Assembly: GCA_000827205.1 (NCBI GenBank) | Contig: KN832554.1 | Location: 3,884,670-3,948,669, forward strand | Length of the DNA: 64,000 bases | DNA from: Plicaturopsis crispa FD-325 SS-3 | Taxonomy: Eukaryota > Basidiomycota > Agaricomycetes > Amylocorticiales > Amylocorticiaceae | Direction of reading: 5' to 3' | Shown here: positions 5,308 through 57,887 of the stretch, one piece after another | How positions within the stretch are numbered: the stretch's first letter is position 1 | Layout of the letters: every line of letters begins with the position of its first letter | The notes under the pieces: model-generated | What the model was told of the DNA's origin: nothing | Seen by the model: the letters and a program-made list of their open reading frames with translations, nothing else | The model's database searches: none | Made by a program: the position numbers and the translations under genes

Positions 5308-7399
5308 TCAATCAAGTCGATTTGACTTGCGATTATAGCGACGTTCCCGGATATCCTCCACGTCGTCTGCCATAGCCCTCCTCATGCCCAGAATTATAAG
5401 CGCTATAGTGCCAACAAGGAAGAACACAAGGTGGAACGGATGGTTCACGATGTAGGTCTCTATGCCGAGAACCTTTTGGTTCGCCCACTGTATGTCGCAG
5501 TCAGCATATGCAAGTATATAACATGTCCAAGACACGTACGCGGGCCAATCTTTCCACCAAGTTCTCCGAGTGTTTGGGTACGATTGTACCCTTCGCGGCG
5601 CCTTGCAGGGCAGAGAATACACTCGTCGATGTGAGCTTGAGTGGATGTCCCCGCTCATCTAAGTCGTAATATACCAGCCGCTAAGAGATGTTGTGAGTAT
5701 AAACACCAAGACTGAGTGACACAAACGATCTCACCCCATGGTCCGCAACGACAACAGCATCCTCGGCGCTCGAAGTAAGCCCGTACATGCTTTTCAACCA
5801 CTTGGCCCACTTGTCCGCGTCCATGTACGCGAAAACGACCGGCCTCGAACCGGCCGCGCTCTTCGTCAACCGCCACTTCTTCGCGATCTCCGTCAACTTG
5901 TCCGCTACCCGTGCCCTCGTTTCGGTGGTCACTGCTGCGATCGCGACGAGGGGCTTGTTGGGCGCGTTCATCACGCTCTGGAACGACTCCTGCGTCAGCT
6001 CCGTGATGGTTGGTAGACGGTTGTCCAGGAGCCACTCTTTCAGCGGCACACCGGTGAAATCGTAGGACGCCACGGGAGAAGTCACATCGCCATCTTTGAA
6101 GACGAGCAAAACGGGGGATGATTTAGAGTACTCTGAGAACCGTTGCCGCAAGTCCGCAGACGAGGATGTATATACCGGGGGATGCCCAAGAAGAACACCC
6201 GCTGCCTGGTTCACTTGATCCTGTGCACGACTAAGGCTCTGCAAGCTGGTTTTTTTTGGAATCGGGCTTACCACTGCATCACTTTGACCCACCTCGTGAA
6301 GGAGGACATAGACAACATCATTTTCACCGATGCGCTCCTCGAATTCCGTCGGTACCAACTCTTGAACTGCACTGATCAAGAAGTCAGAAATCAGAGCATT
6401 CAGTACTAGACGCCACTCACGGTGCTGTGGCTTTCTCAGTGAAAGCCTTCAGCTGGTCGAGCTTGCGGCTACCGGTATATTCTGTCTTTACACCATTGGA
6501 GTAGTAGGAAAGCATGGGGAATCCCTGTATGCCCTCGCTCTTGCATGCAGACGAGTAGTCGTCGCAGTTAACCTCTGCTATTGTCAGTTTGTTCTGCATG
6601 TGTCGGGCGAGTTGTTTCCAAGTAGGCGCAAGCTTCTTGCAGTGCCCACACCTAGTGTCGTGATCAGCACAGGCATTGCAGCACTAAGTATACAGAACCG
6701 ACCATGGTGCAAAGTATTTGATGAATATAGGGCCTTGGTCGATTGCTTCTTTCAAAGTGTCGGCTGTCAAGGGTAGCACTGATCCAGAAGGATTGACGCT
6801 AGCACGGGCAGTCTGTATACGCAGCACTCCGTTACCCGCGGTATGAGTCGCCGTCTCGGGCGCAGCCTTGACCGTCGTTGTAGGCTCCGCGTGGGCTGCT
6901 AGGAATTCGCGAACAATATCGAGCTCTCTAGGTTGTTTGAAAGTTTCTACGAATTCTCCGTTCCGATACAAATTCATTTGGGGGTATCCCTTGACATTGT
7001 TGGCGTCGCAAAGGTCTGCACATGATATAAGCCGAGGATGTATGCAGCTGTATAAGTATGCACTCACCGCCGTGCATAGCACAATTCACCTGAGCTAAAT
7101 GGATCCCAGGGTTTGCAGAGGCCTCATTCTCCTCCACGAGCTTGTCCCAGGTCGGCGCAAAGTCGCGACAGTGGTGGCAATACGGAGAGAAGTGCTCGAT
7201 AAACCTACCCGGCCCTACATCAGCCAGCTGTCCCAAGTCAAATAACGAGAGATACTCACCAGACACCCGTAGAAACCGTCTCATTGAAATTATCTGGGTT
7301 GAGCGTCTTGAGCTCGACAGGTGCGGCGGCGGCGACCAGCGCCAGAGACGCGCACAGCAGCGACGCTGGAAGGCGCGCAAATAGGCTCCACCGTGCCAT
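5308..7399 (-). CDS. Membrane-anchored protein disulfide isomerase with two thioredoxin domains
   Basis: The ATG at 7399 opens a signal peptide (MARWSLFARLPASLLCASLA). The first thioredoxin domain has HFSPYCHHCRDFAP, an unusual C-H-H-C active site. The second has APWCGHCKKLAPTW, a canonical C-G-H-C site split by an intron just before its first Cys codon near 6650. A long non-catalytic lumenal part (codons about 5740-6400) follows, then one membrane helix (FHLVFFLVGTIALIILGM) and a short Arg-rich cytoplasmic tail ending RKSNRLD. There is no KDEL signal, as expected for a membrane-anchored ER oxidoreductase of the Eps1/TMX type. It should catalyse disulfide formation and exchange in secretory proteins. 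Convergent with SEC63; about six introns. Confidence 0.9.
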
Positions 7400-7533
7400 G
7401 ATGTAGATTCTAGAGCTCTGCAAACCAGAGAAAACGTCGAGCTCAACGGCAGCGGACAGCGAGCTCGAGACAGTCAGCGGACAAGATACAAGTTCCGGTG
7501 GCCGACCGAATCACGCTCTCCTTTCTCTCCGTC
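7400..7533. promoter_or_regulatory. Divergent promoter between the PDI gene and CGI121
   Basis: Only 134 bp separate the two start codons, so the genes must share promoter DNA. No TATA box was evident. Confidence 0.5.
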
Positions 7534-8307
7534 ATGCAGACCCACCGATATCCTCAGTTTCCCCCTACCATTGCGGTCGTTCACGTCGCCCTGTTCACGG
7601 ACGTCACAAACGCGTCGTCGCTGAGGCAGCGTATCGTAAATGCGGCGACGAAGCCAGGCGTCGAAGGAGATGCGGAACGCGATGCGCTCAATTTCGCGTT
7701 CATCGATGCTCGGCTGGTCAGCAGCACATCCGTGTCCATAGCGTAGTTCGCACTCTCATGTCTTGGGTCCTGAAGATAACTAGCCCGCTGCACCTACGAA
7801 CCGCGGTGTACCAGGCCTTACTTGCGGAATCCCAGGGTGCGATACGGACGAAAACCGTACATTCGGAGATCTTATGGGCATTGAATCCATCCAACAATGT
7901 TCGCTCGGTGTAGTACCTGAAACGTCCTTTCTCGTTGACGCATACTGCCCTTCAGATCAGCGAGGCCATCCGCCGGTTTGGTGTGTCGGATGCCACCACT
8001 GCACTTTTAGTCGTTCGCGTGGGGTCGGATGACTTGACGGACGTCGATCAGAAAATGCAGGACATCGTCTCCGGCACCTTGTCGCCGCTCACGAACCTGG
8101 AGGGCATCACGGACTGGTCGACAATAAAAAAGGTATATAGCTGCGATCGCACTTGTCCGTCCGTACTAACGCAGCTTATCGTGCTAGCACTACAAACTGA
8201 ATACCGAGGTTGCCGTGAAAGACACGGCGGGGAATGTATCCCGGGAACATGCCGTTGTCGATAGAATTGTTGTAAGCTCAGTGGCAATGAAAAGCGTTAA
8301 CGCATAA
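7534..8307 (+). CDS. CGI121: EKC/KEOPS complex subunit Cgi121 (TPRKB)
   Basis: The start is placed at MQTHRYPQFPPTIAVVHVAL because Cgi121/TPRKB proteins begin with M-Q and an early hydrophobic strand; an upstream in-frame ATG at 7498 is the alternative. Spliced exons give FTDVTNASSLRQRIVNA, LNFAFIDARL, a T-K-T-x-H-S-E-I-L-W-A-L-N-P-S-N-N segment and SEAIRRFGVSDATTALLVV, all in family order. The last exon starts HYKLNTEVAVKD and ends at 8307. The KEOPS complex makes the t6A modification of ANN-decoding tRNAs; Cgi121 binds the Bud32 kinase subunit and the tRNA 3' end. Four or so short introns. Confidence 0.88.
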
Positions 8308-8364
8308 TTTCCCAGTCAAGATACACCGTTACGGTCAACGTGAACTACACTTTTCCACAATTGA

Positions 8365-9128
8365 TCAGGCACCCTCCGTGGACGCCAGCGATACCTTTTC
8401 ATTGGACGACCTCACCGATGCAGCATCCGTGTCGGTCTCCAGCAACCCTTTCTTCTCATTGACGCTGCCTCGTGTTCTGCCCGCGCCACCCCTCCTGGAT
8501 ATAGTGCCCATCGCACTGCGCACGACGCCATGCAACTTCGGCATAGTGGCCCTGCGGACAACACCGACGAGCTTAGGGATCGGCTCCTCCGATATCTTCT
8601 CCGTAGGAGACGGCGAACCCGGCAACGGCCTCATAAACGGCGGGATCGCAGACTCTGGTGAGCCGGACGGCGCCGACGGGGACGCAATGTGTGACGCCGG
8701 CAGAATATCGTGGAAGCTCGTGCATACCCCTGATGGCTGGGCCACTACCTCCTTCACGTACGGCTCTTGGTCGTCTGACGACCCCACCTCATTTAGCGCA
8801 CCGTGGAAAATATTCAAAGAACTAGCAACACATACCTGATTCGTCTGAACTGCTGTCGCCGTCGACATCGACAGACGATGTGGGACTGTGGCACGGGGAC
8901 GTGGGCGAGGACGACACAGGCTTCAGTTCCCCGTACTCTGCGCCGGGTGCGCCCATGTATATGCGTCCCTCCTCGTCTCGGTACGTGTATCGCTGAGTGT
9001 CAGCGTCATACCCTATCCTTCTAAAGCCCTCTGGCAGGCGGGCAGAATCCTGCTCTAGCGTTTAGACGGTCATCCCGCAGCTTGCATATCCGATTGCTCA
9101 CCTCGTCGTACTGTGTCCAACGGCCCAT
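8365..9128 (-). CDS. Small protein with W-QYD / PG-YG domain, copy A
   Basis: Starts MGRWTQYDE, then an intron (acceptor near 9061), then QDSARLPEGFRRIGYDADTQ, YTYRDEEGRIYMG and PGAEYG, a compact domain of about 50 residues. The rest is low-complexity Ser/Pro/Thr-rich sequence with a basic stretch (RRATMPKLHGVVRSAMGTI), ending STEGA. The second intron near 8775-8835 joins DES to DDQEPYVK in frame. No signal peptide or membrane segment is visible. From memory, similar short domains occur in other mushroom proteins, some with LysM modules, but I cannot name a function. It is paralogous to the next gene. Confidence 0.75.
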
Positions 9129-9683
9129 TTGATGCAGGAAGAAAGCTAAGATGGTATCGTAATTCGTTCGAGTCGCGTTTTATGGTTGTGGTTATAATTG
9201 CGTTTGCTCCCAGACACTCACATGCCCGGCAGTGAACGCCGCAAGTTGGCATAGAGATGCTCACAATGAATGCCCACTTGTCACCGCAGGTCACCGCTCG
9301 GCGGTGCTCCGTCCGGTGACATACTGTACATGGAAGGGATTGATGTCAATTGAAACCGATCCAGTGCACGCCTGTTCGTGCAGGCCTCCGCATTATTGTC
9401 TTCGGGGGCGAAGGGCAAAGCGGACGTGATAGAATAATGGTCCAGTGAAGGGGAATCTGTAACGAGCAGACACCGGTTCAGAGGAAAGAATGACGAGTAT
9501 GAACCGTTGACATTGGAGGAGCTAATAAAACATCAGGGAGTGTGCTATTTCAAAGAGATGGGTCAAAAGTCAGAAGGAAGACAGGAGAAGAAGCATATGC
9601 TCACTACAGTGCAAAAGAAAATATAGATACAGATGTTCAAACAGTGAGATATACAGAAATAACCGATAGAGTAAATCGTCCTG
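9129..9683. other. Gap between the two W-QYD genes
   Basis: About 555 bp that should hold the promoter of copy A and the 3' end of copy B. No coding signal found. Confidence 0.5.
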
Positions 9684-10426
9684 TCAGCGGAACCTGGAGA
9701 TATTGCTCGATGCACTAGACGGACACCTCGAAGGTGCTTGCGACCCACGCGGAGAGGCCGACGCCATGGAAGAAAACGTGTTCGCCCTCGACGGGATCAG
9801 GCGCGCGCGCTCCTGGTCATGTACAGGTCGGCGCGCGAAAGTGGCCGAGCGGCGCATGGCGGTTTGCACGAGGCTTTGCATTTTCGAGAATGCATTAGGA
9901 GACGTCTGCGCATTTCTCCCTGATGAAGAAGAGGACGTGGATGTGCTAGAGGAATCGCGGGAGTGCGTATACGCATGAAAGGGGCGAGCATTCCTCGCGG
10001 GGTACGCGGGCAAATCGCGGGAACGTGTTTGTGAAGCGCTCGCAATTTGGGATGCTTGGACAATGTCATAGAATGTCTTCGGTGCGCTCGACGTCTTCCC
10101 CTGAGGCTTAGGTCGCGGGGGGTCTGGGGCGGCATTGGACTATGGACGATGCACGTTGATAGCAGAAGTGTACTCACCGTCAGCGAATAAACGACGGTCA
10201 CTTGGGCGAGCAACTACACGATGCATGACACCATACTGCTCTCCAGGATTTCCTCGCCATAGTTTGCCCGAGCTGTCGCGAAATGTGTAGCATCCCGAGT
10301 CTGCATCGTACGCGACGCGGGTAAAACCCGTTGGTAGTCGTGAAGAATCCTACAGAGAATAAGTGTTCGTTCTTAGATATTTCTACGAGCACAACTTACA
10401 CTGTCGTATTGAGACCAAGGACCCAT
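9684..10426 (-). CDS. Small protein with W-QYD / PG-YG domain, copy B
   Basis: Starts MGPWSQYDS, with an intron at the same place as in copy A (donor near 10401), then DSSRLPTGFTRVAYDADSG, CYTFRDSSGKLWRG and PGEQYG. A second intron (about 10129-10167) joins LFAD to DPPRPKPQGK. The remainder is Ser-rich (a run of serines and threonines near 9930) with a basic helix MQSLVQTAMRRSATFARR, ending SNISRFR. Same architecture as copy A: N-terminal domain, disordered middle, basic C-terminal helix. Function unknown. It is divergent from RPN10 with 235 bp between starts. Confidence 0.75.
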
Positions 10427-10661
10427 ATTTTCGTGTCGTGGTGGTGGTACAAGATGAAGAAAGAAATGCGCTTCCGCCGCGGTGCACTGCGCTTTCCGCT
10501 GCGGGACACCGTGTACTTAGGGGCGTTCCGGTAGCCACCGAGCAAACAGACGACAACAAGACAGACGCGTCAGCTTCGCGCTTTCCCCAAGTCCGCACCG
10601 CACCGACTCTTGTCTTCAGCTCGTGTAATTTCTACATTTTCCCTCCTCGCCCTCGCCCGAA
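10427..10661. promoter_or_regulatory. Divergent promoter between W-QYD copy B and RPN10
   Basis: 235 bp between two start codons, with a pyrimidine-rich stretch just before the RPN10 ATG (about 10612-10655), common before highly expressed fungal genes. Confidence 0.4.
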
Positions 10662-11856
10662 ATGCCGTTGGAAGCGACGATGATGATCATTGACAATTCC
10701 GAGTTTATGCGGAATGGGGACTACCAACCGACACGCTTCGACGCACAATCCGACGCTGTCAATACCATTTTCCAGACCAAAATCGACTCGAATCCGGAGA
10801 ATACAGTGGGCATCATGACTATGGCTGGGAAAGCGTGTGTACTATGCTCTTGATGCCTGCCTGCCTTCACTGAAGTCATGCCATGGCACAGACCTGAAGT
10901 ACTCGTGACACACACGAAAGACCTCGGACAGATCCTCAACGCCGTGCACACATCTTCCTCCAAGATCAGTGGCACGGCTGATATCCCGACGGCAATTGCG
11001 ATTGCACAGTTAGCGCTGAAGCACCGGGAGAACAAGAACTTGCGACAACGTATCATCGTTTTCGTCGGGTCGCCTTTGCAGGGCGATGAGAAGGGCATGG
11101 TCAAGCTCGCGAAGAAGCTGAAGAAGAACAATGTCGCGGTCGACATTGTTGCCTTTGGAGACGGAATAGAGGAGGGGGAGAGCAACGTATTGAAAGCATT
11201 CGTCGACAGTGCATCTAGCGGCGACAACTCGTAAGTCTCTTGATGCAGAATAGCCATGTATTTGTGCTCAAGGAATGTTGCTTGGCCGCAGACATCTCGT
11301 GTCAGTTCCTCCAGGCGCACACCTTCTCTCAGATGTCATAATATCCTCCCCCATTCTCGCCGGCGACCGAGGCATACCAGAAGAAGCCATGGGCGATGCA
11401 GGCCCCTCTGGCTCCGGGTCCGGCGGCGCAGCTGGCAACAACTATGAATTTGGTATCGACCCAAGTCTCGATCCCGAGCTGGCGATGGTGCGTACTTTGC
11501 TCATGTTAACACACCTCGTACTGACTTCAATACAGGCTCTACGGATGTCTATGGAAGAGGAGGCTGCACGGCAAGCCGCGGAAGATGCTACACGACAAAA
11601 TGGTAGTGCGCCTGTTTCGGGATCTACACAAGCTGCGGCGTCAGCTCCTGCACCATCGTCCGCGTCGGCAGATCCAGCAGCTGCCATGGATGAGGATGAG
11701 GAGCTTGCCAAGGCCCTTGCAATGTCGAAAGGCGAGGGCGACGAAGATGTGGACATGGCGGATGACGGCGAAGACGAGGATGAAGACGAAGACATTGCCA
11801 AGGCAATCGCAATGAGTCTGAAGGAAGATGCAGACAACGACAAGGACAAGAAGTAG
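10662..11856 (+). CDS. RPN10: 26S proteasome regulatory subunit Rpn10 (ubiquitin receptor)
   Basis: N-terminal von Willebrand A domain: [33 protein letters not shown], then [14 protein letters not shown] and [10 protein letters not shown] after the first intron. The C-terminal half carries three ubiquitin-interacting motifs, in order [15 protein letters not shown] (assembled over an intron near 11490-11535), [15 protein letters not shown] and [16 protein letters not shown], separated by Ala/Ser/Pro linkers. Rpn10 docks on the 19S particle through the VWA domain and captures ubiquitin chains through the UIMs. Three UIMs is more than the single UIM of budding yeast. At least three introns; stop at 11856. 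Confidence 0.96.
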
Positions 11857-12326
11857 GTTGACACTACTGAAACTGCTATGGATTGTATGTGCATATCTGT
11901 CATTTCTTTCGACGCATGGGCTATCAGTTTCCGATTCAAGATCCAAGTTTTGAGGTCGTAAGTGAATACCTGGGTCGCGCACCGGAATCGTCGGGGCTCG
12001 GGAGTGACCGGACATTGCGCGTTCCTCAGGTTGCAATTGCCTCTTGACTGTCTGGGGGTCGTCAGCTGTCAGACCAGTCAAGGTAAGTAGATATATCGTC
12101 CTTAGGATCTTGAAAAGACTGACGTATCTCCTGGCAGTGTAACAAGGGTTTTGAATGTGTGAAATTACTGAGCAACACGCGGAAGGATCGGCTAATGCAC
12201 CACGCAGCCTCAGCATGGTTGGCGGTGTCTCGCCACGATATTGTAGACTTTGAAATAATCTCCCCGCCATAACACTGGTTATGCTTCGAGGCTATCATTG
12301 TCAGAGGCTATCTGCTCCTGACTTGC
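11857..12326. other. RPN10 downstream region, no supported gene
   Basis: 470 bp. A minus-strand open frame overlaps the end of RPN10, but the overlapping part is an antisense shadow and the rest shows no clear splice or start signals. Confidence 0.4.
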
Positions 12327-12760
12327 ATGCACGACTCAGGTGCTGCGCGTGCGCAAGCCTTGCTTGAGACGCAACTACGCGCGCCGGGCCTGCGTGTACA
12401 CGGTGCTGCAAGAATTCTTGACAAGCAGTACGCCGGCATCATGTCACGAATGGGTGAGTAGTTGTCTGGAATGTTCATCTTCGTTTTTCTGACTAATGTG
12501 CGTGCTCGGGCTTTTCGATCAGTATGCGGCGAATAGGTGTTGCAGCAAACCTTGCAAATCGCGCGTCCGATTGCACAGGATTTTCATATCACTGTCGGAA
12601 ATGCACCTCCAGGGGCAGGATACCTGCAATCGTCACTCCAGCCGCGGGTTTACGCCCCCAATCGTCACTTCAGCCCGTGTTCACAACTGATAGTCTCTTG
12701 TAGATCACCACACCTCTGCTTCACGAAAACAGCATGGTGCGCAGTCGAGGAAAGTATATA
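12327..12760 (+). CDS. Possible short gene, unrecognised
   Basis: An ATG at 12327 opens MHDSGAARAQALLETQLRA and, further on, ARILDKQYAGIMSRM, which looks helical and coding. A good GTGAGT donor near 12452 and a CTAAT branch site follow. How it continues is unclear: one acceptor gives an immediate stop, others read different frames up to about 12706-12760. It may be a small gene, a 5' fragment or chance. No family recognised. Confidence 0.22.
12755..12760 (+). promoter_or_regulatory. TATA-like box of the five-repeat gene
   Basis: TATATA about 55 bp upstream of the ATG at 12814. The partial copy at 15208 has ATATAAG at a matching distance. Confidence 0.4.
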
Positions 12761-12813
12761 GCGTACTCGCCCAAGGCCAGGTTCCTTCCATCATCTCTCC
12801 CCTGCACCCCATC

Positions 12814-14971
12814 ATGGCGAGCACACTGACGCCCGACACTCTCACAAATATTCTCGACAAATGCGAAGGTACTCCGACTCAGTTCCACGGACTCCCCGAC
12901 GAGGACCTGCGCTGGCTTGACGACATCAAACGATGCGGCGAGGCGCATGCCATCCTTGAAACGCAGTGGTCTGACGTTGCCCTGCATTTCATCAAAGACG
13001 AGCTCAAGGTGGTGATGACCGAGCGGAAAAATCACATTGCACTCTATGGAGCTAAAGAATGGGAATGGGAGGACTTTAAGCGTGACTTCATATCGTTCTG
13101 TGGTGAGCCCTGGCTTGTCTCTTCGCGCATTGCGGCAGGACGCTGAATCGGACTCGTCTTAGAGAAAGCGAGACGCCGTAAGCAATGCTCTTCCCAAGTT
13201 GTTGGAAGCGCCTACTCACAATATGCCAGACGAATCCCCCGGCGTGGTTCTCGAAACACCGGTTCCCTGGGACCTTCCCCTCGCCTTCGAGCGATGCTCC
13301 GAGAAAGAATACGTCCAGTCGTGGCTCACCGATGTTGAGCAAGGCGCCCGTGAGCGTGGCATTCCGGACGCCAAGTATGCGCAAGTAGCGACTCATTTCC
13401 TCCCCGACGGTCTGCGTACCATTGTGGAAGAACGCAAACAACACCTGCTCCTCTTCGGCCTCTCCGAGTGGACATGGGCGGACTTCAAGCAGGAGCTTCT
13501 GTACATATGTGGTCCGTATCCAGATTGTATGACACGTCCACCTTTTCACTAACAGAGAATTTGTCCTGCAGACGATGAGAACCGATGTGAGTTTTTCTTG
13601 ATCTATGCCAATGCTCATTTGATCAACGGCAACCATAATCACAGTTTGGACAGAGGCCAGACTACAGAGTGTACTCGACTCTTGGAAACCAGCGCCAGCA
13701 TTCAGCGGTATCCCCGGGGAGGATTCCATACGTGCCTGGCTTGACGCAACTGAGCACGGTTGTCGGAGCTACCACATTCCACAGTCAAAATACACCAGCG
13801 TCGCTATCTCCTTCCTCGTGGGCGACCTCCGAACGATAATGCAAGAGCGCCAGCGCGAGCTCCTCTCTCTCGGGTCGTCGGAGTGGAAATGGGAGAGCTT
13901 CAAGACTGAGTTCATCTCGTTCTACGGTTCGTAGTTGCATCTATGTGTCGTGTGCTCATGCTAACGCTCAGCGAAGGCATCCTCTTACGGGAACTTGAGT
14001 CTTGGGAGCAGCCTCCTGTCTTCAGTGGATCCCTGGACGAGGACCCCAATGCGTGGTTGGATGCTATCTCAAAAGGCTGTCAAGAACGCCAGATCCCAGA
14101 AGTGCGACACGCCGACGTCGCCATCTATTTCCTAGCGGGCGACATCAAGGACACCATGATGGCCATAAAAACGACTGGTGTGCAAACCGGATCTGCCGAC
14201 TGGAGCTGGGCATTGTTCGTGGAGGAATTCAAGCGTGTTTACCGTGAGTTGCTCTTCTTTCGTCCACGTCTCCCGAGCAGGAAGCTAAATCCAATCCACA
14301 TAGAACATGTGCGTCAGAGTGCGTTGACCGAGTTTTCGCAGCGCCTCCTCACCGGCGTTACTGACTTACTTGTGCAGAGACATTACGGGACGTACTCCAG
14401 TCGTGGGAAGATGCACCGACGTTTGGCCTCAGCAACCAGCTACAAAGCCACGGATCGTGGCTCCAAGCTATGGAACAAGGCTGCCGCGACCGCAAGATTC
14501 CTGACGACTTACTTACGGACGTGGCATTCCACTTTTTGAGGGGCGATCTGCGGAATGCCGTGGAGAAGCGCAGACTGACGGCGGTGCAGGCTGAGGAAGA
14601 GCCATCGCAGTGGACGTGGGAGGTCTTTCAGCAGGACGTCGCAAATTCTTGTCGTGAGTCCTCCGTTAGTATTGACACGGACTATGCCTGACCCTTACCT
14701 CAGAGGAATTGGGAAAGAAAAGAACAGGTTAGATCCGCTCTTTTGGCACAATTCGCCGCTGACCCTCGTTGTCTTCTGCACAGAGGCGGCTCAGAAAGCG
14801 TTTGCCAGCTTCAACCCTGCGTCCCGGGAGGGACACGCCAACGTTGGGCCTGGTGCTCTTGTCCACCCTGCAGGGCTGCAATCTCTCACCAGCGGGGAAG
14901 CCCTGCCTGCAGCAGTCTTTGCTGTTATGAACATGAACACCTGGTTCCGCAGGTCGAAGAGTCGCCGATAA
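12814..14971 (+). CDS. Five-repeat protein, about one repeat per exon; function unknown
   Basis: After splicing the protein is almost entirely five diverged repeats of about 75-85 residues, each carried mainly by its own exon and separated by short introns. Each unit has an early tryptophan or glutamate-rich helix, a W-L-D (or W-L-T/W-L-Q) core such as DEDPNAWLDAISKGCQERQI, an I-P-x-x-x-(Y/W)-x-D-V-A motif, a F-L-x-x-D-L-R segment (FLVGDLRTIMQER, HFLRGDLRNAVEKR) and a final W-x-W-x-x-F-K/Q helix (SEWKWESFKTEFISFY). A tail of about 80 residues ends NTWFRRSKSRR. There is no signal peptide or membrane segment. Some splice sites are ambiguous (the donor after repeat 1 and a mini-exon before repeat 5). 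I recall single units of this kind in other mushroom genomes, but no named family; the alternation of helices suggests an all-alpha scaffold. Confidence 0.72.
12868..14655 (+). repeat. Array of five diverged protein-coding repeats
   Basis: Approximate units: 12868-13103, 13218-13512, 13660-13925, 13990-14240 and 14390-14655. Spacing in DNA is 270-440 bp because introns lie between units. They share W-L-D, D-V-A, F-L-x-x-D-L-R and W-x-W-x-x-F-K landmarks but little DNA identity, so the duplication is old. Confidence 0.7.
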
Positions 14972-15207
14972 GTTATGTTGTGGTCATTTAGCTCGGCGGG
15001 ACCGAGCTTTAATATATGTCATCTATTCCTTGTGTGTACCCATCTTTCGCTCCGTTCATCCTATATCTCTGCTCACGTATGTCGACTAGTACTTACATGT
15101 ATCCTGTAAAACACGATTCCGGATACACGTTGTTCAGTAGGACGAGAATATAAGCCGAGTTCTCTTCAGGTTTTTCTCATTTGCTTCCAACGTTCACTGC
15201 GCCAGAC

Positions 15208-15508
15208 ATGTTCCCAAAATTGTCTCCCGATGCCTTGCTCAAGATTATCAACTCTAGCTCTAAAGGTGAAACTCTGAGACGACGCGCAATACGCAGGGTG
15301 CCATTGTGATTTTATTTGGCGTATCGACGTCATGTTCACCACATCTAGCTACAGCTAGTTTATATATGATTAGTGGGCATTATATAAATCCGGGGCACGA
15401 TAGAGTCTGTGGATCCTGCGTCTCGCAATTGTCGAGTACAAGGAGCATTAACTTGGTCCGAAGTCGACAGGGACTACGTGCGACACATGGCTCAGATGTA
15501 CCCAACTT
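15208..15508 (+). pseudogene. Partial copy of the five-repeat gene, first exon only
   Basis: ATG at 15208 begins MFPKLSPDALLKIINSSSKG, which aligns with MASTLTPDTLTNILDKCEG, the start of the five-repeat gene. It is followed by a GTGAAA donor-like sequence, and an ATATAAG box lies about 60 bp upstream as in the full gene. No WLD-type repeat follows before the amidase gene, so it looks like a truncated duplicate. A very short intact gene is the alternative. Confidence 0.45.
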
Positions 15509-17937
15509 TTAGGATATTTTGAAAGGGTACTCACTGTTAATCGCGTCGAAGTCGTGGAACGTGGGCTTCACCCGTCTTTTTCCAAGAGCATCATCAATCG
15601 CAGAACCGTATTTGATGAGCGTCGGCTCAGAAAAAGCAGTCGACACGATGGAGAGGCCAAAGGGAACACCTGCGCGATGAGCAGTCTCGTTAGCAAACGG
15701 TATGACGCGAGAAAGGGATAACCTCACTCCATTCATCGACAGAGATGGGCACCGTGATTATTGGGTAGCCTGCCCGGGCAGGGGCCTGGAATCCGTGAGG
15801 TCAGCTTCGTTCGGAACGATGGGGATAAAGTCGGTCACACCTCTGTTCCGGGACCACTGTCGTCCGAGGGAATGAGCAAAGCGTCTAGGAAAAAGTCGTT
15901 GTGTCCATGTTTGAGCGCATAATCGATCCCCAATTCCCGTGTGGATTTGTGACCCCAAGCCTAGTATTTGCGTCAGGAAGCTCTTCCTTTGGCGACGTAC
16001 AGGGTGGGTGGGGAGCCTGGCGAAAACTCACGAGGGCTGCTTTGTAGGTCTCGTCTTCAACACCGCCCGTCGCGAAACTGTCTAGAAGTCCGTCTTGACC
16101 AGAAGCAAAGGCTGGCGCGGTTCCCTATGATCGCGTGAGTATTAGACGTCGTGTTAGAGATGAATTGATGCTCACAGGAATGCCTCCTTCCACCGCGGTC
16201 ATAGCATCATCAAACGCGATGATGTCGCCAAGGTTTTTCATGGTCGTATTGGTGAGCTCCTTGAGGTATGCATTGACGTTATTGTACTGAGGAAATCGAC
16301 TCAGTTCCCCGGCTTGAAGGAAATACATAGACAGGTTTCAGACGTACGAAATCGACTTTCACGACTGTGAATTCCGATTTATTCGCCTGCTCGTAATCCC
16401 AGTTCCTGCATAGGATAAGCACGGAACGAAAAGATACAGTCGAGTGGCGTACCATCCGTCAGAAGAGACGATTTCACTCTGATACTTGTAATCTTTGGTG
16501 AAAGTAAATTAGTTAGAGTCATCTTCGTTCAATAGATAGAAATTCCAAACCAGTGTTGTTGTATATTATTGCACCAGCGGCTTTGAGGACTTTCAGAGCA
16601 TCGAGCAGAGCTGGAAGTTGGCCGGCGGCTGATGGCTGATCCCAGAGATTCTTCCATGGGAGACCAAACTGTGACACGCCGCGGAAGTAAGCCTTGAGCA
16701 CTATTCACGTTCGCGTTATGCTACTCACCTTAGCACCCTTCAGGGCACGTGTATTTGAGAGGAATTGAGTATAATCTACGCAAATACGCCAGTCAACTTC
16801 AAGTATCACCAAGTGGCCGAAACATACTCTTGTGTGATCTACCCTCTTGCGCGAAGGTCGCTGTGTCTCTATCGTCTATTCCAACGATTGTCTCAAGGGC
16901 ATATACTGCGTCCTTAAATGTCCGCCCGAAAGCGCCTACTGTGTCTTGATTTGTGCTTTCGGGGATTACGCCGGCGCGTGAGGTAAGACCAACGGTGGGC
17001 TTGATTCCGATGACTGAAGCGCGCTCGCCGGGGGAAATGACGGACCCGTCGGTTTCCGTTCCATATGCCACCATGATCAGGTTGGCGGAGACGGCGTGTC
17101 CAGATCCCGAAGACGACCCCCCGGGCTCCTGGGTCAGATTGAACGAGTTCCTGCATTGCCCGCGCCGAGATGAGTATCCCTCTGAGCTGTGTGAATGTTA
17201 ATTCAACGATGTGAGGACGCCCTTCGTCGAAATGAATTCTCACTAGCTTGTGCTCCTCATATCGGCCCATTCACTCAAGTTGGTGTGCCCCATGATAATG
17301 GCGCCCGCTTTTCGCAAAAGCGCGACGACGTGAGCATCTCGCGGAGCGATGGATCCTACCAGAGCTAGGGATCCTGCTGTCGTTTGCATTTTATCCTGAA
17401 AACGCTGGTGAGACTGGAACGGTGCGGCTATATCACGTGTTGGTACCTTTGTCGCGATGTTGTCCTTGACGAAGACGGCTGGATTGTTTGGCAAGTTCAG
17501 TCAACCAGTTACATCGACGGAGAGAGCGTAGGACTAACGTATGCCATGCATAGGACCTCTCACAATGCCTCTCGCTCGTTCGGCATCGAGCTCGTCGGCA
17601 ATTTTATAGGCATCTGGGTTGAACTCCATCACCGCGCTGTGATGTCAGCCGGTAAACACGAATGGATTCCAGGTATAAACGGGTTGTGAGGGACGCACCC
17701 GAGATGGCCATCCACGACGTGCATTCTGTCTTCGTAACATTTGACAATGTCACGGCTGGTCAATTTTCCTGTCGATAGCCAATGTTGAACCTCGTCGATG
17801 GTTGCTTCTTCGAGTGGGAGTCCATGGCAGAGTGGCATAGGAAAAGGCTCATGAGTAGGGCCTCGGGATGCGCTCGCACACCGACAAGTGAGGGCGATCC
17901 CCAACAGCTGAATGAAGAGGTGGCGCATCCCGAACAT
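15509..17937 (-). CDS. Secreted amidase (amidase signature family)
   Basis: Signal peptide at the N-terminus (MRHLFIQLLGIALTCRCASA, with an ATG two codons earlier at 17937). Family motifs appear in order across about nine introns: TSRDIVKCYEDR; VFVKDNIATK, holding the catalytic Lys; HVVALLRKAGAIIMGHTNLSE; YSSRRGQCRNSFNLTQE; PGGSSSGSG with the cis-Ser; GTETDGSVISPGERAS with the nucleophile Ser; KPTVGLTSRAGVIP. The C-terminal exon holds RAGVPFGLSIV and ends EYPFKIS. The Ser-cisSer-Lys triad is therefore complete. It hydrolyses amide bonds; the leader suggests action outside the cell or in the secretory path. Substrate unknown. Several GATAAG sites lie upstream (separate entry). Confidence 0.92.
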
Positions 17938-18522
17938 CGTTGAGGCCTACGTAGTTCCAGGACTCAGTGTATAGAATAAACTATATAACTGGTAGAGCAG
18001 CTCATACCTGCTTATCTTGCATCCCGTAGTGCATACGGTCAGCGCTCGTTGGGATCGCTCCGGAAATACGACCAACCTACCTTGACGAGGAATAATGCCT
18101 AAGGAAACCGCTGGGCGCTTATCGCTTGCTGGGCGGCGTTCTGGCGGGGTAAACTGTGTGTTTCAATGTTGATTCAATGACATCGCGTCAATTTTTAGCC
18201 GGGAGCGCCCAAGGTGGCACACACTCTGTTTAATGCACTCGTGCGATAAGTATCAAGTAGTCGCGAGTATACAGAGTACAGAGTACTCACTACCGCTTTC
18301 TGTAGGTGGTAAGAAAGAAAGAAACGCAACTTCTCTGATGCAAGCGAATTTGAACTCGCATCACGGTAATTAGATAAGATAGCAGCTCAGATTGCAATAA
18401 CATATGGGTGCCAGTAAGATGTGTGGTCGCGTATACAAGCGACTAGAGGATGGACAGTCATATTCAGAATCGTCTAGCATGATTTTGCATACATACATCC
18501 GTAGAACAAACCCACCTCCAAG
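17938..18522. other. Amidase upstream region
   Basis: 585 bp without a gene, holding the GATA cluster, a short GAAA microsatellite near 18311-18322 and a hairpin-like inverted repeat TGATGC/GCATCA near 18338-18365. Confidence 0.5.
18011..18378. promoter_or_regulatory. Cluster of four GATA-factor sites upstream of the amidase
   Basis: Exact GATAAG/CTTATC hexamers at 18011-18016, 18118-18123, 18245-18250 and 18373-18378, within 368 bp. About 0.2 would be expected by chance on two strands. GATAAG is the core site of AreA/Nit2-type nitrogen regulators in fungi. The region lies 5' of the amidase and 3' of GRC3, so the amidase is the natural target. Confidence 0.55.
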
Positions 18523-21228
18523 TTACATCTGCCCCTTCCGCATCAAATTGCGTCTCACGCGCCTCCGCTCGGCACCCGCGCCCTCTCCCTTCCCCCATCG
18601 CAAATACGGCACGCGTGCATTGTCGACGCCCGCGATTTTCTCGCCGCCGCCACCGTCTGCCGCGTCCCGGAAGTCCAGCATGCCCCAGATGGGGAGCTCG
18701 AGCTCGCCTTTGACGAGAGCGCGCGAACGGGACAGCAGATGCGGTGGAAGGGGCGTGAGGATGTGGAGAGCGGCAGCTATTGTGTTTGGACTCGGGGTGG
18801 GATGTGGGGCGGATAGGGCCGGGGCAACGGCGCGGACGATGGCCAGACCATAGCAGTGCGACATTGCGGGATCGGGAAGACCTTGGCCCTGCTGGTATGG
18901 CAAGACAGCGCGGCCTGCCTCTCCGGTCGTCCCATCGGCTCCCTCGTCCATACGCACAAGGCCCACTACTGCACCATTCAATACTCTTCCTATTTCTCCT
19001 TCAACGATATCCTCACTCCCGGGGCCGGTGAGAAATACGACATCGAGCGCAACTGCAGGATCAACGGCATATGGCGGACGGGCGACAAGAGGAAGGGCCG
19101 TGTTCCATGATGTGGCAATGGGGCTGACCAAGGGGGATGATAAGGAGGTCGATGAATTGTCCGGGAAAAAAGCATGAAAGTACGACATAAGGGCGATGTT
19201 CCGCATGTCTGACGCCATCCACGCCTGGCTAGGCGCTATCGGTTGCAGTGTATACGTCTGAACTTTTGGATTCGGGATAACATCCGCCACGTAAGGCGTA
19301 CGTGCAGAGTATGACGGCGGGAATGATGCGGCGGTAGGTTCGGCAACAGAGCAGATGTGCGTTGGTTCGACCATCTCCTCGATTTTCTGGGTCAGGTCCG
19401 CGCCGAGGCCCTTCGTCCAGCCCATAGTGTTCACGACAAGCGGAATGCTGACGTCGATTATATCGGCCATGTCGCCTATTTCTTCGAGGTCGGAAGGGTG
19501 CTGAACTTCAGTCCGGAAGGCCTGCACAAGGTCATGCACGCACGCAAGGTAATGAGCGGGAGCAGCTCGAGGAGACGCAGCGCCGATGTAGTGTGCACGG
19601 TACGGGAGACTTGGGTGTGTATATGGTGGGCCTTTAGTTGCCTTCAGCATTATTGATACATTTAATGGACGAAGAATACTAACCAAATATGGGCCGATCA
19701 ACGATGGTAAGTGCGACCATCCCACCCGGAGTGAATTCGCTCTGGCCCACGTCGGTCTCGAGGAATGCGACACGAGAGTACCTGGAAGACCACCAACATA
19801 AGTTATAGAACGATTCCTGAGGCGGAGACAAAGCATACCGTTCCAACAATTTGTTTACGAGTGTCCTTGCGAAGGTGCTTTTCCCCGTCCGCTTTGCACC
19901 CTTAACAAGACACACAGTCTCTGTATCCTGTACATCTTCACCTAGATCAGGCATACTTGTGTCGTGTTCATTAGTTTTCACCGTAGGCAATGGCGGCGCG
20001 ATGGCAGACAAAGCAGTTTCCCAGTCAGATGGGACGGCAAATTGCGATGCTAGCCTTCCTCCTTGTGTTACCTGCGAGATGAGAAAAGGTCATTTCAGAA
20101 TGTAGAAACAGGGATTGGCGCAGAAAAACACATGGAGTGGACGCTTACCAGGTGAATGCCGTCTACTCCCAAATCGGTCGTCTCAGCCCCATTATTAGGT
20201 GGGTTGAAAACTCCCTCAAAAGTGCGGACAACTTTGCCCAGACCATCTACACCAGAACGCAACGGTGAAATGAGGATAAGCACGCCCTCTGTGTTGGCCA
20301 GCGCAGAATGCTTTGCGTCTTTAAGTCCGATATTAGCGTGATTTGAATTGAAAACGAAACATTACATGCCGAAGACCAGTCGCAATCGTGGTGCAGGTGG
20401 CGGGTGGGAAGGAGCATGAATGACGGGGAGTGGTGCACACCGTGGGGCATATATTCTGTGGTGACGGCGAGGATCAGAAAGAACGGTTGCCCCAGAAATA
20501 GTGAGTGCACCGCGAAGAACGGTGACAGCACAGGCGCCTAGAAGCGTAGCCGTCTGTCCTAGCGCAAGATGTAAAAGCGCAGAGGTGCCTTCGGAGATGG
20601 ACGAGGATGAGATATCGGGGCACAGCGAATGTACTTCACGAGGTTCCAAGTGAAATATGTTTTGTTGGTAAATAGGTTGGAATGTCGATAGAATAGGTGC
20701 TGGCGGTTTGTGTGGAGCAATTGATGGTCCAGGATGTGGTTTCGTTTGTATGTGGGTAGCTTCAATTTCGCCATCGTCTTCGTCCGAAGAGTCTACTAGC
20801 GGAATCTGTAATTCCTCGAGGTCGACATCTTGGTCGACGTTCATCGAAATATCGGCATCTTCGTCAGGGTCCTCGAATTCCACAAACGACTCCTCGTCTA
20901 CCGCCTTTTCCTTGCCCTTGCCTTTCAGGCGCCCAAGTTTTGGATTTGGATCGACGCGGGCCTCTGCGAAATACCTCAGCTCTGTTCCACCTCGCCCAGA
21001 CTTGGACTCTTTGCGCTGTTTCTTCCTCTTCTCTGTGGCGGGCGTCTTTTGTTGGGTTTCTGTCGTCTGCTTGGCAGCGCTCAATTTTCGCTTCGGTGGT
21101 CGAGGTGGGGACGAGGGACGCGACGGAGGTGATGGGCTTGGAACCGCTAGCGGCGGCGGCGCGGCTGGTAGACGCGCTTTACGCGCTGCAATTGCACTCA
21201 GCATTTGTGCGTTCAGTGCCGTCTTCAC
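18523..21228 (-). CDS. GRC3: Polynucleotide 5'-hydroxyl-kinase Grc3
   Basis: N-terminal basic and disordered part with KGKGKEK and a run of acidic residues, then PIYQQNIFHL and a small beta domain. The central kinase has a P-loop GAKRTGKSTFARTLVN near 19850-19890, then RVAFLETDVGQSEFTPGG, characteristic of the Clp1/Grc3 family. A C-terminal domain of about 300 residues includes VNTMGWTKGLGADL and LTGPGSEDIVEGEIGRVLNG, ending RRNLMRKGQM. Grc3 phosphorylates the 5' end of 26S pre-rRNA made by Las1 cleavage in ITS2, and acts in the nucleolus. Four exons or more; the main C-terminal exon is about 1.1 kb. Divergent from TSR2. Confidence 0.93.
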
Positions 21229-21411
21229 GCTACGCGCAAGGATCCAAACGAGATACGGCGACTTTTAACAGGAGAAAGTTGCAAGAGCAGGTCCGCGTCT
21301 TGAAGAAAATACACAGATGATACGTAGATCCGAGAGCCGATCCGATAGTTATCGACTCTTCTCCTATTTTACGTTGACAAAATCTTTGACAAAATCTATA
21401 CTGCACAGAAA
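21229..21411. promoter_or_regulatory. Divergent promoter GRC3/TSR2
   Basis: 183 bp between the two start codons. A direct repeat of CAAAATCT with TTGA context (about 21378-21398) lies close to the TSR2 ATG. Confidence 0.5.
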
Positions 21412-22002
21412 ATGGCCGACGCTCCTCCACCACCACACCAAGTCCTTTTTGCGCGCGGAGTCATAGCAAGGCTAGCTATATGGCCCGCTCTTCGTCTGGC
21501 CGTATCAAACTCATGGGGCGGACCACCCTCGGTCTCGGTCTCAAAGCGCACATGGCTCGCATCCGAGCTCGTCGACGCGTTTACATCCAATCAGGTCGGC
21601 GAGCAGGGTAGCGAGGAGGAGGACGTGGAATGGGTGGCAGAGATGCTTGCACAGGTGATGGAGGACGAGTTCGACTGCACTCTGGGCGACGGGAGCGAGG
21701 AGGCCGTTGCGCGCGACATCGTGAAATTGTGGCCAGAAGTAGCCAGAGGAGGAACGGAAGCTGAGGAGAAAGTCTTGCGATGGGAACGAGACGCGGAGGG
21801 TGCAAGAGGAACCGCGGTTGTTGCACACGAGCAGGCTCCAGAAGGAAGCGACTGGGAGGATGATAGTGATAGCGGGAGCGACGACGGGGAAGGCGGGGGT
21901 GAAGTTCCGAGACTTTTGGACCACTCACGCGAAGACAGAGAAAGACAGGAACCGGTAGTGGACGAGGATGGATTCACGCTTGTGCAGCCCCGAAAGCGAT
22001 GA
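21412..22002 (+). CDS. TSR2: Pre-rRNA-processing protein Tsr2
   Basis: Single exon, 196 codons. Contains the WGG motif (VSNSWGGPPS) that defines the Tsr2 family, a helical segment EDVEWVAEMLAQVMEDEFD with the conserved EDEF, an acidic stretch SDWEDDSDSGSDDGEGG and the typical ending VDEDGFTLVQPRKR. Tsr2 is a chaperone that loads Rps26 into pre-40S particles after nuclear import. Intronless, unlike most neighbours. Confidence 0.92.
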   Translation: MADAPPPPHQVLFARGVIARLAIWPALRLAVSNSWGGPPSVSVSKRTWLASELVDAFTSNQVGEQGSEEEDVEWVAEMLAQVMEDEFDCTLGDGSEEAVARDIVKLWPEVARGGTEAEEKVLRWERDAEGARGTAVVAHEQAPEGSDWEDDSDSGSDDGEGGGEVPRLLDHSREDRERQEPVVDEDGFTLVQPRKR

Positions 22003-30545: not shown

Positions 30546-30912
30546 NNNNNNNNNNNNNNNNNNNNNNNNNNNNNNNNNNNNNNNNNNNNNNNNNNNNNNN
30601 NNNNNNNNNNNNNNNNNNNNNNNNNNNNNNNNNNNNNNNNNNNNNNNNNNNNNNNNNNNNNNNNNNNNNNNNNNNNNNNNNNNNNNNNNNNNNNNNNNNN
30701 NNNNNNNNNNNNNNNNNNNNNNNNNNNNNNNNNNNNNNNNNNNNNNNNNNNNNNNNNNNNNNNNNNNNNNNNNNNNNNNNNNNNNNNNNNNNNNNNNNNN
30801 NNNNNNNNNNNNNNNNNNNNNNNNNNNNNNNNNNNNNNNNNNNNNNNNNNNNNNNNNNNNNNNNNNNNNNNNNNNNNNNNNNNNNNNNNNNNNNNNNNNN
30901 NNNNNNNNNNNN
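30546..30912. other. Assembly gap (367 N) inside the tandem element
   Basis: The gap is flanked on both sides by the same 259-bp unit. Terminal repeat starts at 30522 and 31015 are 493 bp apart, which is 25 short of two units, so the gap length is probably an estimate. Confidence 0.95.
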
Positions 30913-34678: not shown

Positions 34679-37600
34679 ATGGAACGCGAACTGCGCTGCA
34701 TTTCAGTGCTCGCAGAGGTTGCCCTTGACCACGCCAAAAAGCTGCAACAAGCATTGCAAAACTTGAAGGTGCGTAACTGATACTCTTTATTCTGCAAAGG
34801 AGCTGATTTCGTAATGCGACTTCTCAAAGATCCTCCGCGCGCCTTGCACGCTCTACAAGTTTGCGGCAGACATGGTCGAGTCAATGGAGCAGCTTCCTGG
34901 TCTCCTCACAACTTCGAAGTGTCGGATAGATGTCCCGGGTCTACGAGAGTCCTTGTCGATTGTCGCGGTGTACGTGTAATTCTTACTGATATACTCCCTG
35001 TTTATCTCATCCCTTCTCTTCATAGCGATATACACCACACGCTCCTCAGGCTCAATGATGTCTCCACCTCCAAGGGGATGCTTCGTGGCCTCGGTGTGAA
35101 ACTCAAAGCATGGAAGTCCAGAGACGAGCTGATGGCGAATATCAAACGGATTGACGACGAGCTCACGGCGTGTTTCTCATTCATTACGGCAAGTCTTTCC
35201 CTTCGTGTGACACAGAGCTCCCCCTTTGTCTTTTTGAGATTCAAGGACTTTGGTCGCTTGTAATCTGGCTAGTCTGTCACTAAACCGCGTACTGATGAAC
35301 ACAAGTAGGACTTGACGGATGCGGAACCGGATTTTGAGGAGGCGACAGAACATGGTATCCCTGCCACCGAAGACCAAGATCTTTCCCGAGACCAGGAGCC
35401 ATTGAATGATCGCGAACTATTCCTAGAGACTTTACGCCCGTGTCTCGCGCGCCTCAAGGATGTCTTTGAGGGGCATATTCGAGACATGGATGCGGATCCT
35501 CAGCAGCTATACACGCTTTTCGAAATCCGTGGTATGTCCCTTGCGGAATTGAGCAATGCGATCCACACAGTCTCTACGGTACGTACATCCACATCGTGCA
35601 CTGTGTATGAACTCCTGGGTGACCGAACAATGCTATCTCTCTTGCTGCATTACCATGTTGCGCAGATTATGACCAAACTCCCCAAGCCATCGTTCGCTCA
35701 CAAGTATATTTCCCGCCTTGTGGAGATGCTGGAGACGGCCACCAGCCATATGCCACCCGGGTCTTCATTCGTGCAGACAGATCGCGACCGTCTATCCAAT
35801 GCAGTGTACCTCGCCAAGATCCTCCAGACGCTCGACGCACTTGGCACGGAGCTGGATTCTTCGACGCCCGGGGGTCGATCCCCATCGACAATGACCGTAG
35901 AGACCATACTGGCATGCATAGACAAACTCACCACGGATCTCATGCATGCAAACCTCATATCCAACGCACACGACATCATCTCACACTTCATACCTGTCCT
36001 GGACCGCATGATCAAGAACCGGCTCCACCACCCTGCCCAGTGGCCGCTCGTCGGTACATTCCTAGCATTCCTAGTGTATCTCCCGACGTGCCTGTACCGC
36101 CTAGGTTACGTCGCGGAGGGACATACGCGCTCGCTCGAGGCCACCTCTGTGTGCATCCACCTCGCCGGAAAATATCCCGCCGCGGTTCAGCTACTTGTAG
36201 TCCAGAATTTGGTCTGCACCGCACAGGATCTGCGAACATTCGGTTTCAAAAGCAGTGCGATGCTTACGCTCGAAAAAGCCATGAGCTTCATGCAGTCTGT
36301 CGTGGAAACTCCACATGGCCTTGCGAACTATTCCGCACAGATACTACTCAATGCCTCGGAACTATGGCTGTCGATGAAGGATTACAAACTTGCGTTGAAG
36401 GCCGCGAAAGAGGCGGTCAACATCCGTACACATCTTCTGCACGCGCCCTTAGATCGACAAGAAACCCGTGCCCACCTTCCGTGTTCTGAATTCGCTCATG
36501 AACATGTGTTCTCCCGTGCCACTGCAGCATCCACAGGGACACACCCTCCACTGGCGTTATCGCCCATATTGGCCATTGCGGAATCTTGGACTAGCGTCGC
36601 GAGGTGCTGCCAGGCGATGGGTCAGCCCCAGAAGGCGCTGGAAGCCTTGAACGAAGCGGTCCAGTTGCAGAAGAGGGAAGAACCTAGCTTACCCGTCGCG
36701 GAGGCCCAGCTATCGGGACAACGCTCTAATGAAGGGACCAAACATCTTGGTGAATGGGCGAGGCTGCTGGACGAATGGACCGGAATGCTATCAGTCCTCG
36801 GGTCCTCCACTGCGTACGATACCGGACAGGCTTCGATCAGTATACATCGACGTCTCGCAGATGAAAACCCCGGTACACTAAGTACGGAACTGGCGCACTC
36901 GCTTGTCACGTTCTGGGATGCCTATCAGCCCCCGTCTCCTGCAAGTGACGGCGCCTACGCTCATCAGGACAACGATATTACCGGCCAATCAACTGTTGCG
37001 ATCCAGGAAGCGGTTCGAATATACCGCGCTTTCCTTCATGTCCGACCTGAAGTGCATGGCCAACAGCTTCTTGCAGGTGCGCTCACGAGGGAAGCATTGT
37101 CCCTGCGCCAAACATCGCCAAGTGATTCTCTGTCCATCGCATTGGAAGCTGCAGATATATGGATGAGCATCAATGGGGTGGATAATCTTGGTTACCTCGA
37201 TCCCAGTTTCATCCGGACTGTCAAACTCCTACTCGTGCTGCTCGCGTACTTCCGCCGGCCGGAGGAGTGTGCAGCATTAGCAACAGTCGCACATCCTCTG
37301 ATAGACACATATGCTGCACAAGCGGAGGACACGCCGGACAAATACTACCCAGAGCTGGCGTCGTTGTTGATAATCGTTGCGACGCAGCTGTCCTACCTTG
37401 GCCGCTACGACGAGTGTGCAATCACAGCGCAACGGGCCGCTACTATATTCACCTCCCTCCATGAGAAGGGCTTGGAAACGAAGGATCCGGCACTTGCGCG
37501 GTGGCAAATGTTACTTTCCGAATGCTTATACGACCGCGGGCATCTCGAAGACTCACTGATGTGGGCTCAGAAAGGGATCCGGGTATGGCGCCAGCTTGCC

Positions 37601-57600: not shown

Positions 57601-57856
57601 GCCGCCTCCTCTAGGGCTTCGATTTCTTCTCTAGTGCGCTTCCGGTCCTCCTCTTGCTTCTGCATGATAGCACTGGGAGGCAGAGGACCGCTGTGCACGG
57701 GTTCCTCGCGGGCGATAGCTGGCGTGACCGACACTTTGCGCGTGTCCGTAGCTTCCATCGGATCGATGCGCTTCGCATTCGACGCGGCGTTGCTCTGCAT
57801 TGCCAGCTGTTCGCGAGAGCTCTGCTGGCGGAGCGCCTGCGTGGGCTCTGCCTGCC

Positions 57857-57887
<31 letters not shown>

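What the first reader, a model, noticed from the sequence alone, without database searches (positions are those of the whole stretch)
12814..14971. Undescribed five-repeat protein with about one repeat per exon
Five units with common landmarks (W-L-D, I-P...D-V-A, F-L-x-x-D-L-R, W-x-W-x-x-F-K) sit mainly on separate exons with short introns between, a layout that suits growth by exon duplication. I know no named domain with this pattern. The units have diverged in DNA but keep their landmarks, which suggests selection on the protein.
Basis: partly seen in the sequence, partly recalled or inferred. Interest (0 to 1): 0.72.

Follow-up and report, generated by a model that had tools for sequence, protein, structure and literature searches.

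The report
Five capsid-like lobes in one gene
A fungal gene that matches no catalogued protein domain appears to encode five copies in a row of a small helical domain shaped like one half of a retrotransposon capsid protein, each copy on its own exon, which suggests that an old captured capsid piece was multiplied into a new host protein.

Summary
Window 12814-14971 (+) reads as a 10-exon gene with GT-AG introns of 41-60 nt encoding 553 aa. Five diverged units (26-41% identical) lie on five separate large exons, with three 15-nt microexons and one of 24 nt. All ten unit pairs find each other in whole-genome searches, 12 of 20 directed comparisons at E <= 2.1e-12, weakest 0.006. One other locus carries the domain: a single-unit gene on contig C6, with a phase-1 intron at the same domain edge. 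No Pfam family matches. AlphaFold models of two units (unit 3: pLDDT 90, pTM 0.81) show a tail helix plus four helices. Foldseek's most probable PDB matches for unit 3 are all Arc N-lobes or Arc capsid domains (probability up to 0.84), the N-terminal half of a Ty3/Gypsy-type capsid; but no E-value is significant (lowest 0.54), and sequence evidence for Gag descent is weak and partly negative. My reading: five tandem CA-NTD-like 'half-capsid' lobes, probably from an old Gag domestication, spread by phase-1 exon duplication, acting as a multivalent binding scaffold. Function is inferred; RNA and orthologues were not available.

The parts
12814..13102 (+). Exon 1: start codon and unit 1 (unit match 12826-13101)
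   Evidence: GTGAGC donor, phase 1
13163..13177 (+). 15-nt microexon, linker between units 1 and 2
   Evidence: inferred from frame and GT-AG sites, phase 1 to 1
13230..13511 (+). Exon with unit 2 (13244-13510)
13572..13586 (+). 15-nt microexon, linker between units 2 and 3
   Evidence: inferred, phase 1 to 1
13645..13930 (+). Exon with unit 3 (13647-13925); AlphaFold pLDDT 90.2, pTM 0.81
   Evidence: donor GTAGTT is weak, phase 2
13972..14243 (+). Exon with unit 4 (13979-14242)
14304..14318 (+). 15-nt microexon, linker between units 4 and 5
   Evidence: inferred, phase 1 to 1
14378..14653 (+). Exon with unit 5 (14380-14652); AlphaFold pLDDT 82.4, pTM 0.72
14704..14727 (+). 24-nt microexon after unit 5
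   Evidence: inferred; donor GTTAGA is weak
14784..14971 (+). Last exon: C-terminal tail of about 62 aa and stop codon; no Pfam match

Best explanation
The gene encodes a 553-aa protein made of five tandem lobes. Each lobe has a short N-terminal tail helix and a four-helix bundle with the fold of the N-terminal half of a Ty3/Gypsy-type Gag capsid protein (CA-NTD, the Arc N-lobe). There is no room for a C-terminal capsid lobe and no CX2C zinc knuckle in the sequence, so on its own it should not build a closed capsid lattice. A single-lobe ancestor, still represented by the C6 gene, carried a phase-1 intron at the end of the lobe; duplication of phase 1-1 symmetric exons, probably with a 15-nt linker microexon, multiplied the lobe without breaking the frame. 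Most likely it works as a multivalent binding array: each lobe offers the groove that holds partner peptides in mammalian Arc, or the lobe's own tail in Drosophila Arc. SHOWN: the units, the open and joinable reading frame, constraint between units, no Pfam match. SUPPORTED: CA-NTD-like fold (0.75). INFERRED: descent from a Gag (0.6), order of duplications, binding array as the working mode (0.4).
For: Two AlphaFold models from window units alone are confident and alike: tail helix plus four helices. Unit 3 against PDB: the six listed rows with probability 0.5 or more are all Arc or dArc (0.84, 0.75, 0.75, 0.72, 0.66, 0.51), TM by target length up to 0.75, rmsd 2.4-4.4; 42 of 50 rows shown are capsid domains. 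Unit 5: the three rows with probability 0.5 or more are MLV CA-NTD (two) and PEG10 CA; 22 of 50 rows shown are capsids. Viral models: 24 of 50 rows shown are Gag, coat or polyproteins of retroviruses, pararetroviruses or a metavirus. Published Ty3 CA-NTD is a bundle of four helices (PMC6525542, passages). Profile alignment in global mode scores Arc 14.2 and five Gag pieces of this genome 11.7, 10.7, 9.3, 7.1 and 4.8, against a maximum of 7.7 in 295 TPR windows; of other control windows 1 of 172 reaches the Arc score and 1, 3, 3, 4 and 14 of 154 the Gag scores. Exon phases and the equal domain edge of units 1, 2, 4, 5 and the C6 lobe. Mammalian half-CA genes keep just the N-lobe (PMC11011659, passages).
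Against: No Foldseek E-value is significant (lowest 0.54, 1.2, 1.1). Many of the 42 capsid rows are redundant HIV-1 entries with low probability and TM of about 0.35. No Pfam Gag match for any unit and no Arc or Gag among PDB sequence hits. The unit profile against the five-Gag alignment gave probability 5.5%. Shuffles reach 16.9 in global mode and 20.5 in local mode; only two of the six pieces beat all 40 of their own shuffles in global mode. One Gag piece aligns out of register. Pairwise, units 4 and 5 do not beat shuffles of Arc (708 and 483 of 2000 as high). The A-x-x-W-W signature of Arc helix is not kept in the units. Nothing tests the binding function.
Confidence: 0.45

Rival explanations
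1. A new helical repeat domain that is unrelated to Gag: four helices packed like a capsid lobe by convergence, used as an ordinary protein-protein interaction repeat.
For: No significant sequence or fold E-value to any capsid; small helical bundles are easily matched by chance, as the RFC clamp-loader rows (12 of 50 shown) illustrate.
Against: The matches with probability of 0.5 or more are capsid domains in both PDB lists, two different units agree, and the Gag and Arc pieces score in the upper tail of control windows.
Confidence: 0.3
2. A half-capsid antagonist: the five lobes bind N-lobes of Gag proteins of resident LTR retrotransposons and poison particle assembly, as RTL8 does to PEG10 and as the capsid-derived Drt2 and p22 do to yeast Ty1 elements.
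For: Precedents: RTL8, an N-lobe protein, binds the PEG10 capsid N-lobe and lowers particle release (PMC11684626, abstract); Drt2 is a domesticated Ty1' capsid piece that restricts Ty1' (PMC10951436, abstract); p22 (PMC4599808, search listing). The genome holds LTR-element Gag loci (7 PF03732 matches, 3 over the cut-off).
Against: None of the six lobe queries hit a Gag locus at E up to 10 (the tool scores only its best candidates), whereas the known antagonists are close copies of their targets. The C6 relative has a hydrophobic tail that does not suggest this role.
Confidence: 0.15
3. Not a working gene: a decaying or mis-joined run of repeats with no spliced product.
For: No RNA evidence; two donors are weak (GTAGTT, GTTAGA) and one intron is only 41 nt.
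Against: Ten exons join in frame over 1,662 bases with GT-AG sites; pN is well below pS in all 10 unit pairs.
Confidence: 0.05

Closest known systems
Arc (Arg3.1) N-lobe and Drosophila Arc capsid domain
   Same: Predicted four-helix lobe with an N-terminal tail; best Foldseek probabilities; some motif likeness, e.g. EEYW between the C6 lobe and Arc
   Different: Arc has one N-lobe followed by a C-lobe; here five lobes and no C-lobe, introns at lobe edges, no significant sequence similarity
Mammalian half-CA genes (RTL8, LDOC1, RTL6)
   Same: N-lobe of a capsid kept without a complete capsid (PMC11011659, passages)
   Different: A single lobe each, in mammals; [quoted passage not shown]
Yeast DRT2 and Ty1 p22/p18
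   Same: Capsid part used by the host or element against Gag
   Different: Ty1-type C-terminal capsid domain, near copies of live elements; here N-lobe-like, old and diverged
Single-unit gene on contig C6 of the same genome
   Same: Same domain (E 3.4e-7 with unit 4 over 42 aa; the C6 lobe as query finds all five units at E <= 0.01); phase-1 intron at the same domain edge
   Different: One lobe with an extra phase-0 intron inside it, then a hydrophobic Ala/Gly-rich C-terminal region; not found by units 1 and 2

Membership tests
Gag CA-NTD / Arc N-lobe fold | Four-helix CA core after an N-terminal tail | tested here: met
   Two models with a tail helix plus four helices; Arc N-lobe rows up to probability 0.84, TM 0.75 by target. 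Caveat: predicted structure, no significant E-value
Gag CA-NTD / Arc N-lobe fold | Sequence match to Retrotrans_gag (PF03732), Ty3_capsid (PF19259) or another Gag family | tested here: not met
   No Gag family for five units or the C6 lobe at E up to 10
Gag CA-NTD / Arc N-lobe fold | Profile-level similarity to Gag capsids | tested here: inconclusive
   Upper tail of control windows in global mode, but shuffles overlap and one piece is out of register
Gag CA-NTD / Arc N-lobe fold | Conserved A-x-x-W-W on the long helix (the Ala81, Trp84, Trp85 of dArc2, PMC8121366 passages) | tested here: not met
   Units have G-D-L-R-T-I-M-type sequence there; the C6 lobe keeps only the Ala
Domesticated capsid gene | No flanking LTRs and no pol genes | tested here: inconclusive
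   No direct repeats of 30 nt or more in window 6000-22000; the ten window ORFs scanned show no reverse transcriptase or integrase, but not all ORFs were scanned
Domesticated capsid gene | Purifying selection on the protein | tested here: met
   Between units, pN 0.40-0.49 against pS 0.69-0.82 in 10 of 10 pairs; orthologues not available
Full Gag protein | C-lobe (CA-CTD) and NC zinc knuckle | tested here: not met
   Units follow each other with short linkers, and the 553-aa sequence has no CX2C (read by eye)
Capsid-forming protein | Assembles particles or capsomers | not testable with these tools
   Needs expression and electron microscopy
Pfam repeat families | Match of any unit to a curated repeat or domain | tested here: not met
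   Only Intimin_C, E 0.17, below cut-off, for one unit

The most novel reading that the evidence does not exclude
A single-chain capsomer: five covalently linked capsid N-lobes that close into a pentameric ring like the five-fold position of Ty3 and Drosophila Arc capsids, evolved by exon duplication in a fungus, and used as a ring scaffold or as a cap or poison for capsid-like assemblies.
Probability: 0.1. Interest if true: 0.9.

Novelty: new variant of a known kind. Interest (0 to 1): 0.6.

Why it matters
Domesticated capsid genes are best known from animals and, as near copies of Ty1, from yeast. A fungal gene with five tandem N-lobe-like domains, microexon linkers and symmetric phase-1 exons would show a captured capsid half used as a modular repeat, and would allow a test of whether linked capsid lobes bind peptides, form rings or block retrotransposon particles. 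If the Gag link fails, it is still a helical repeat domain that is absent from Pfam.

Tried and rejected
Pfam for units, tail and the C6 gene: no credible match. PF06140 (Ifi-6-16), tried because I recalled ISG12-like tails in C6-like fungal proteins: no match in the genome, so that recalled link is not supported. PDB sequence searches with units or the C6 lobe: only chance-level hits such as MAF1, calponin, methane monooxygenase, dynamin-like protein and hemolysin E, and no Gag or Arc. Relatives of the C6 lobe in viral contigs and genome contigs: none confirmed. A start-like peptide at 15208, checked as a remnant of a second copy: no similarity above chance. A tree of the six lobes: all three inner branches unresolved. 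Nine paper searches (the last returned nothing): in the listings I saw no tandem N-lobe protein and no domesticated Ty3-type capsid gene in Basidiomycota; most subscription journals are not held, and the listings are capped, so this does not prove absence.

Full report
What is there. Window 12814-14971 on the + strand carries five related coding units. I translated the open stretches and aligned the units: ten columns are invariant (F, W-L, I, V-A, F, W-x-W, F) and mean column identity is 46%. In six-frame searches of that genome every unit finds the other four; of 20 directed comparisons 12 have E <= 2.1e-12 and the weakest is 0.006.

Gene model. Ten exons join to 1,662 coding bases and 553 aa plus stop. 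The nine introns are GT-AG and 41-60 nt long; eight are phase 1 and the one between units 3 and 4 is phase 2. Besides the five large unit exons and the last exon there are three microexons of 15 nt (13163-13177, 13572-13586, 14304-14318) and one of 24 nt (14704-14727), each phase 1 to phase 1, so that a domain exon with its microexon can be duplicated without loss of frame. The model is from sequence alone, and two donors are weak.

Relatives. The only other place found in the genome is a gene on contig C6 (from C6:1529988). Units 3, 4 and 5 find it (E 0.0017, 3.4e-7, 0.0025), units 1 and 2 do not, and its lobe as query finds all five units at E <= 0.01. Read by hand, its lobe is split by a phase-0 intron and ends at a phase-1 intron 14 residues after the start of W-x-W, the same place as in units 1, 2, 4 and 5; the exon of unit 3 ends 4 nt later. 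Its C-terminal region is hydrophobic (19-residue hydropathy 1.75, against 1.05 at most in the five-unit protein) and has no paralogue in the genome. I recall similar single-lobe proteins from many Agaricomycetes; no call tested that. With the C6 lobe as query nothing was confirmed in viral contigs or in bacterial and archaeal genome contigs; no fungal collection was available.

Selection. Between units pS is 0.69-0.82 and pN 0.40-0.49 in 10 of 10 pairs; codon positions 1 and 2 are 45-64% identical, position 3 30-42%. The repeats are old and constrained as protein. The tree of the six lobes is unresolved.

Fold. With only the five window units as alignment, AlphaFold gives pLDDT 82.4 and pTM 0.72 for unit 5 and 90.2 and 0.81 for unit 3: a short tail helix, then four helices. 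Foldseek against PDB with unit 3 ranks a human Arc N-lobe first. Of the 50 rows shown (184 matches in all) 42 are capsid domains (Arc, dArc, HIV and SIV, Ty1', PNMA2, PEG10) and 8 are not; the six with probability of 0.5 or more are all Arc or dArc. Many of the 42 are redundant HIV-1 entries with low probability and rmsd over 7. With unit 5, 22 of 50 rows shown (142 in all) are capsids and 12 are RFC-type clamp loaders; the three rows with probability of 0.5 or more are MLV CA-NTD twice and PEG10 CA. Against viral models 24 of 50 rows shown (108 in all) are Gag, coat or polyproteins of retroviruses, pararetroviruses or a fungal metavirus, the first row being a phage lipoprotein. The lowest E-values are 1.2, 0.54 and 1.1, so no single match is significant; the case rests on agreement. 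The Ty3 paper describes CA-NTD as a bundle of four helices after an N-terminal stretch, a core fold shared with CA-CTD and SCAN (PMC6525542, passages).

Sequence test of Gag descent. The genome's Gag loci were found with PF03732 (7 matches, 3 over the cut-off) and PF19259 (2, none over). Five capsid pieces from them and the Arc N-lobe (checked against PDB) were aligned one by one to the profile of the six lobes. Global scores: Arc 14.2, then 11.7, 10.7, 9.3, 7.1 and 4.8. Of 295 windows of a TPR protein the highest was 7.7. Of windows from eight other ORFs, 1 of 172 reached the Arc score, and 1, 3, 3, 4 and 14 of 154 the five Gag scores. Against this: 240 shuffles of the same pieces reach 16.9, and only two pieces beat all 40 of their own shuffles; in local mode scores are 10.4-16.7 with shuffles up to 20.5; one piece aligns out of register; a profile of the five Gag pieces together gave probability 5.5%, P 0.007, on a poor alignment. 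Pairwise with Arc, shuffles as high as the real score were 7, 97, 101, 708 and 483 of 2000 for units 1-5 and 35 for the C6 lobe. Pfam and PDB sequence searches found no Gag. So the fold is supported, and common descent with Gag is plausible but unproven.

How it works. In Drosophila Arc the N-terminal tail packs into the lobe at the site that binds peptides in mammalian Arc, and N-lobes form pentamers and hexamers in capsids (PMC8121366, passages). Each unit here has its own tail helix before the lobe. A chain of five such lobes without C-lobes suits a multivalent scaffold in which tails or partner peptides fill the grooves. The antagonist reading has precedents: RTL8 binds the PEG10 capsid N-lobe and lowers particle release (PMC11684626, abstract), and Drt2 restricts Ty1' (PMC10951436, abstract). 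Against it, none of the six lobe queries hit a Gag locus of this genome at E up to 10. The function stays inferred.

Surroundings. Nearby genes look ordinary: ubiquitin-interaction motifs just upstream, and further off thioredoxin, CLP1-like, malate/lactate dehydrogenase and PMT domains. No direct repeats of 30 nt or more lie in window 6000-22000.

Verdict. A real, unusual gene, probably a fungal tandem half-capsid gene: a new variant of domesticated capsid genes. Interest 0.6, held back by insignificant E-values and by the lack of orthologues and RNA.

Noticed in passing
window 38314-38871 (perhaps to 39189), - strand: ORF rich in Gly/Ala with AGIQSVLYGGATGGLFS, which I recall from fungal IFI6/IFI27 (ISG12)-like proteins. 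Pfam gives only C19orf12 below its cut-off (E 0.005), and PF06140 has no match in the genome.
   Followed up: partly
window 15208-15267, + strand: A start-like peptide, MFPKLSPDALLKIINSSSKG, followed by a possible splice donor, looks a little like the start of the five-unit protein; similarity is not above chance.
   Followed up: partly
window 35309-38173, + strand: A 954-aa open frame with tetratricopeptide repeats.
   Followed up: no
window 55989-58454, - strand: An 821-aa open frame with a long glutamine tract and many low-complexity stretches.
   Followed up: no
L027 (G000:C15:674363-674578): A Gag match sits in a reported open frame of 5191 aa; the DNA after it reads N (masked), so the length is probably an artefact of masking.
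   Followed up: partly
window 30546-30912: A run of 367 N, withheld or unsequenced.
   Followed up: no
L007 2284-2748 (G000:C6): C-terminal Ala/Gly-rich hydrophobic region of the single-lobe relative, with no paralogue in the genome and no Pfam match; perhaps a membrane-linked version of the domain.
   Followed up: partly
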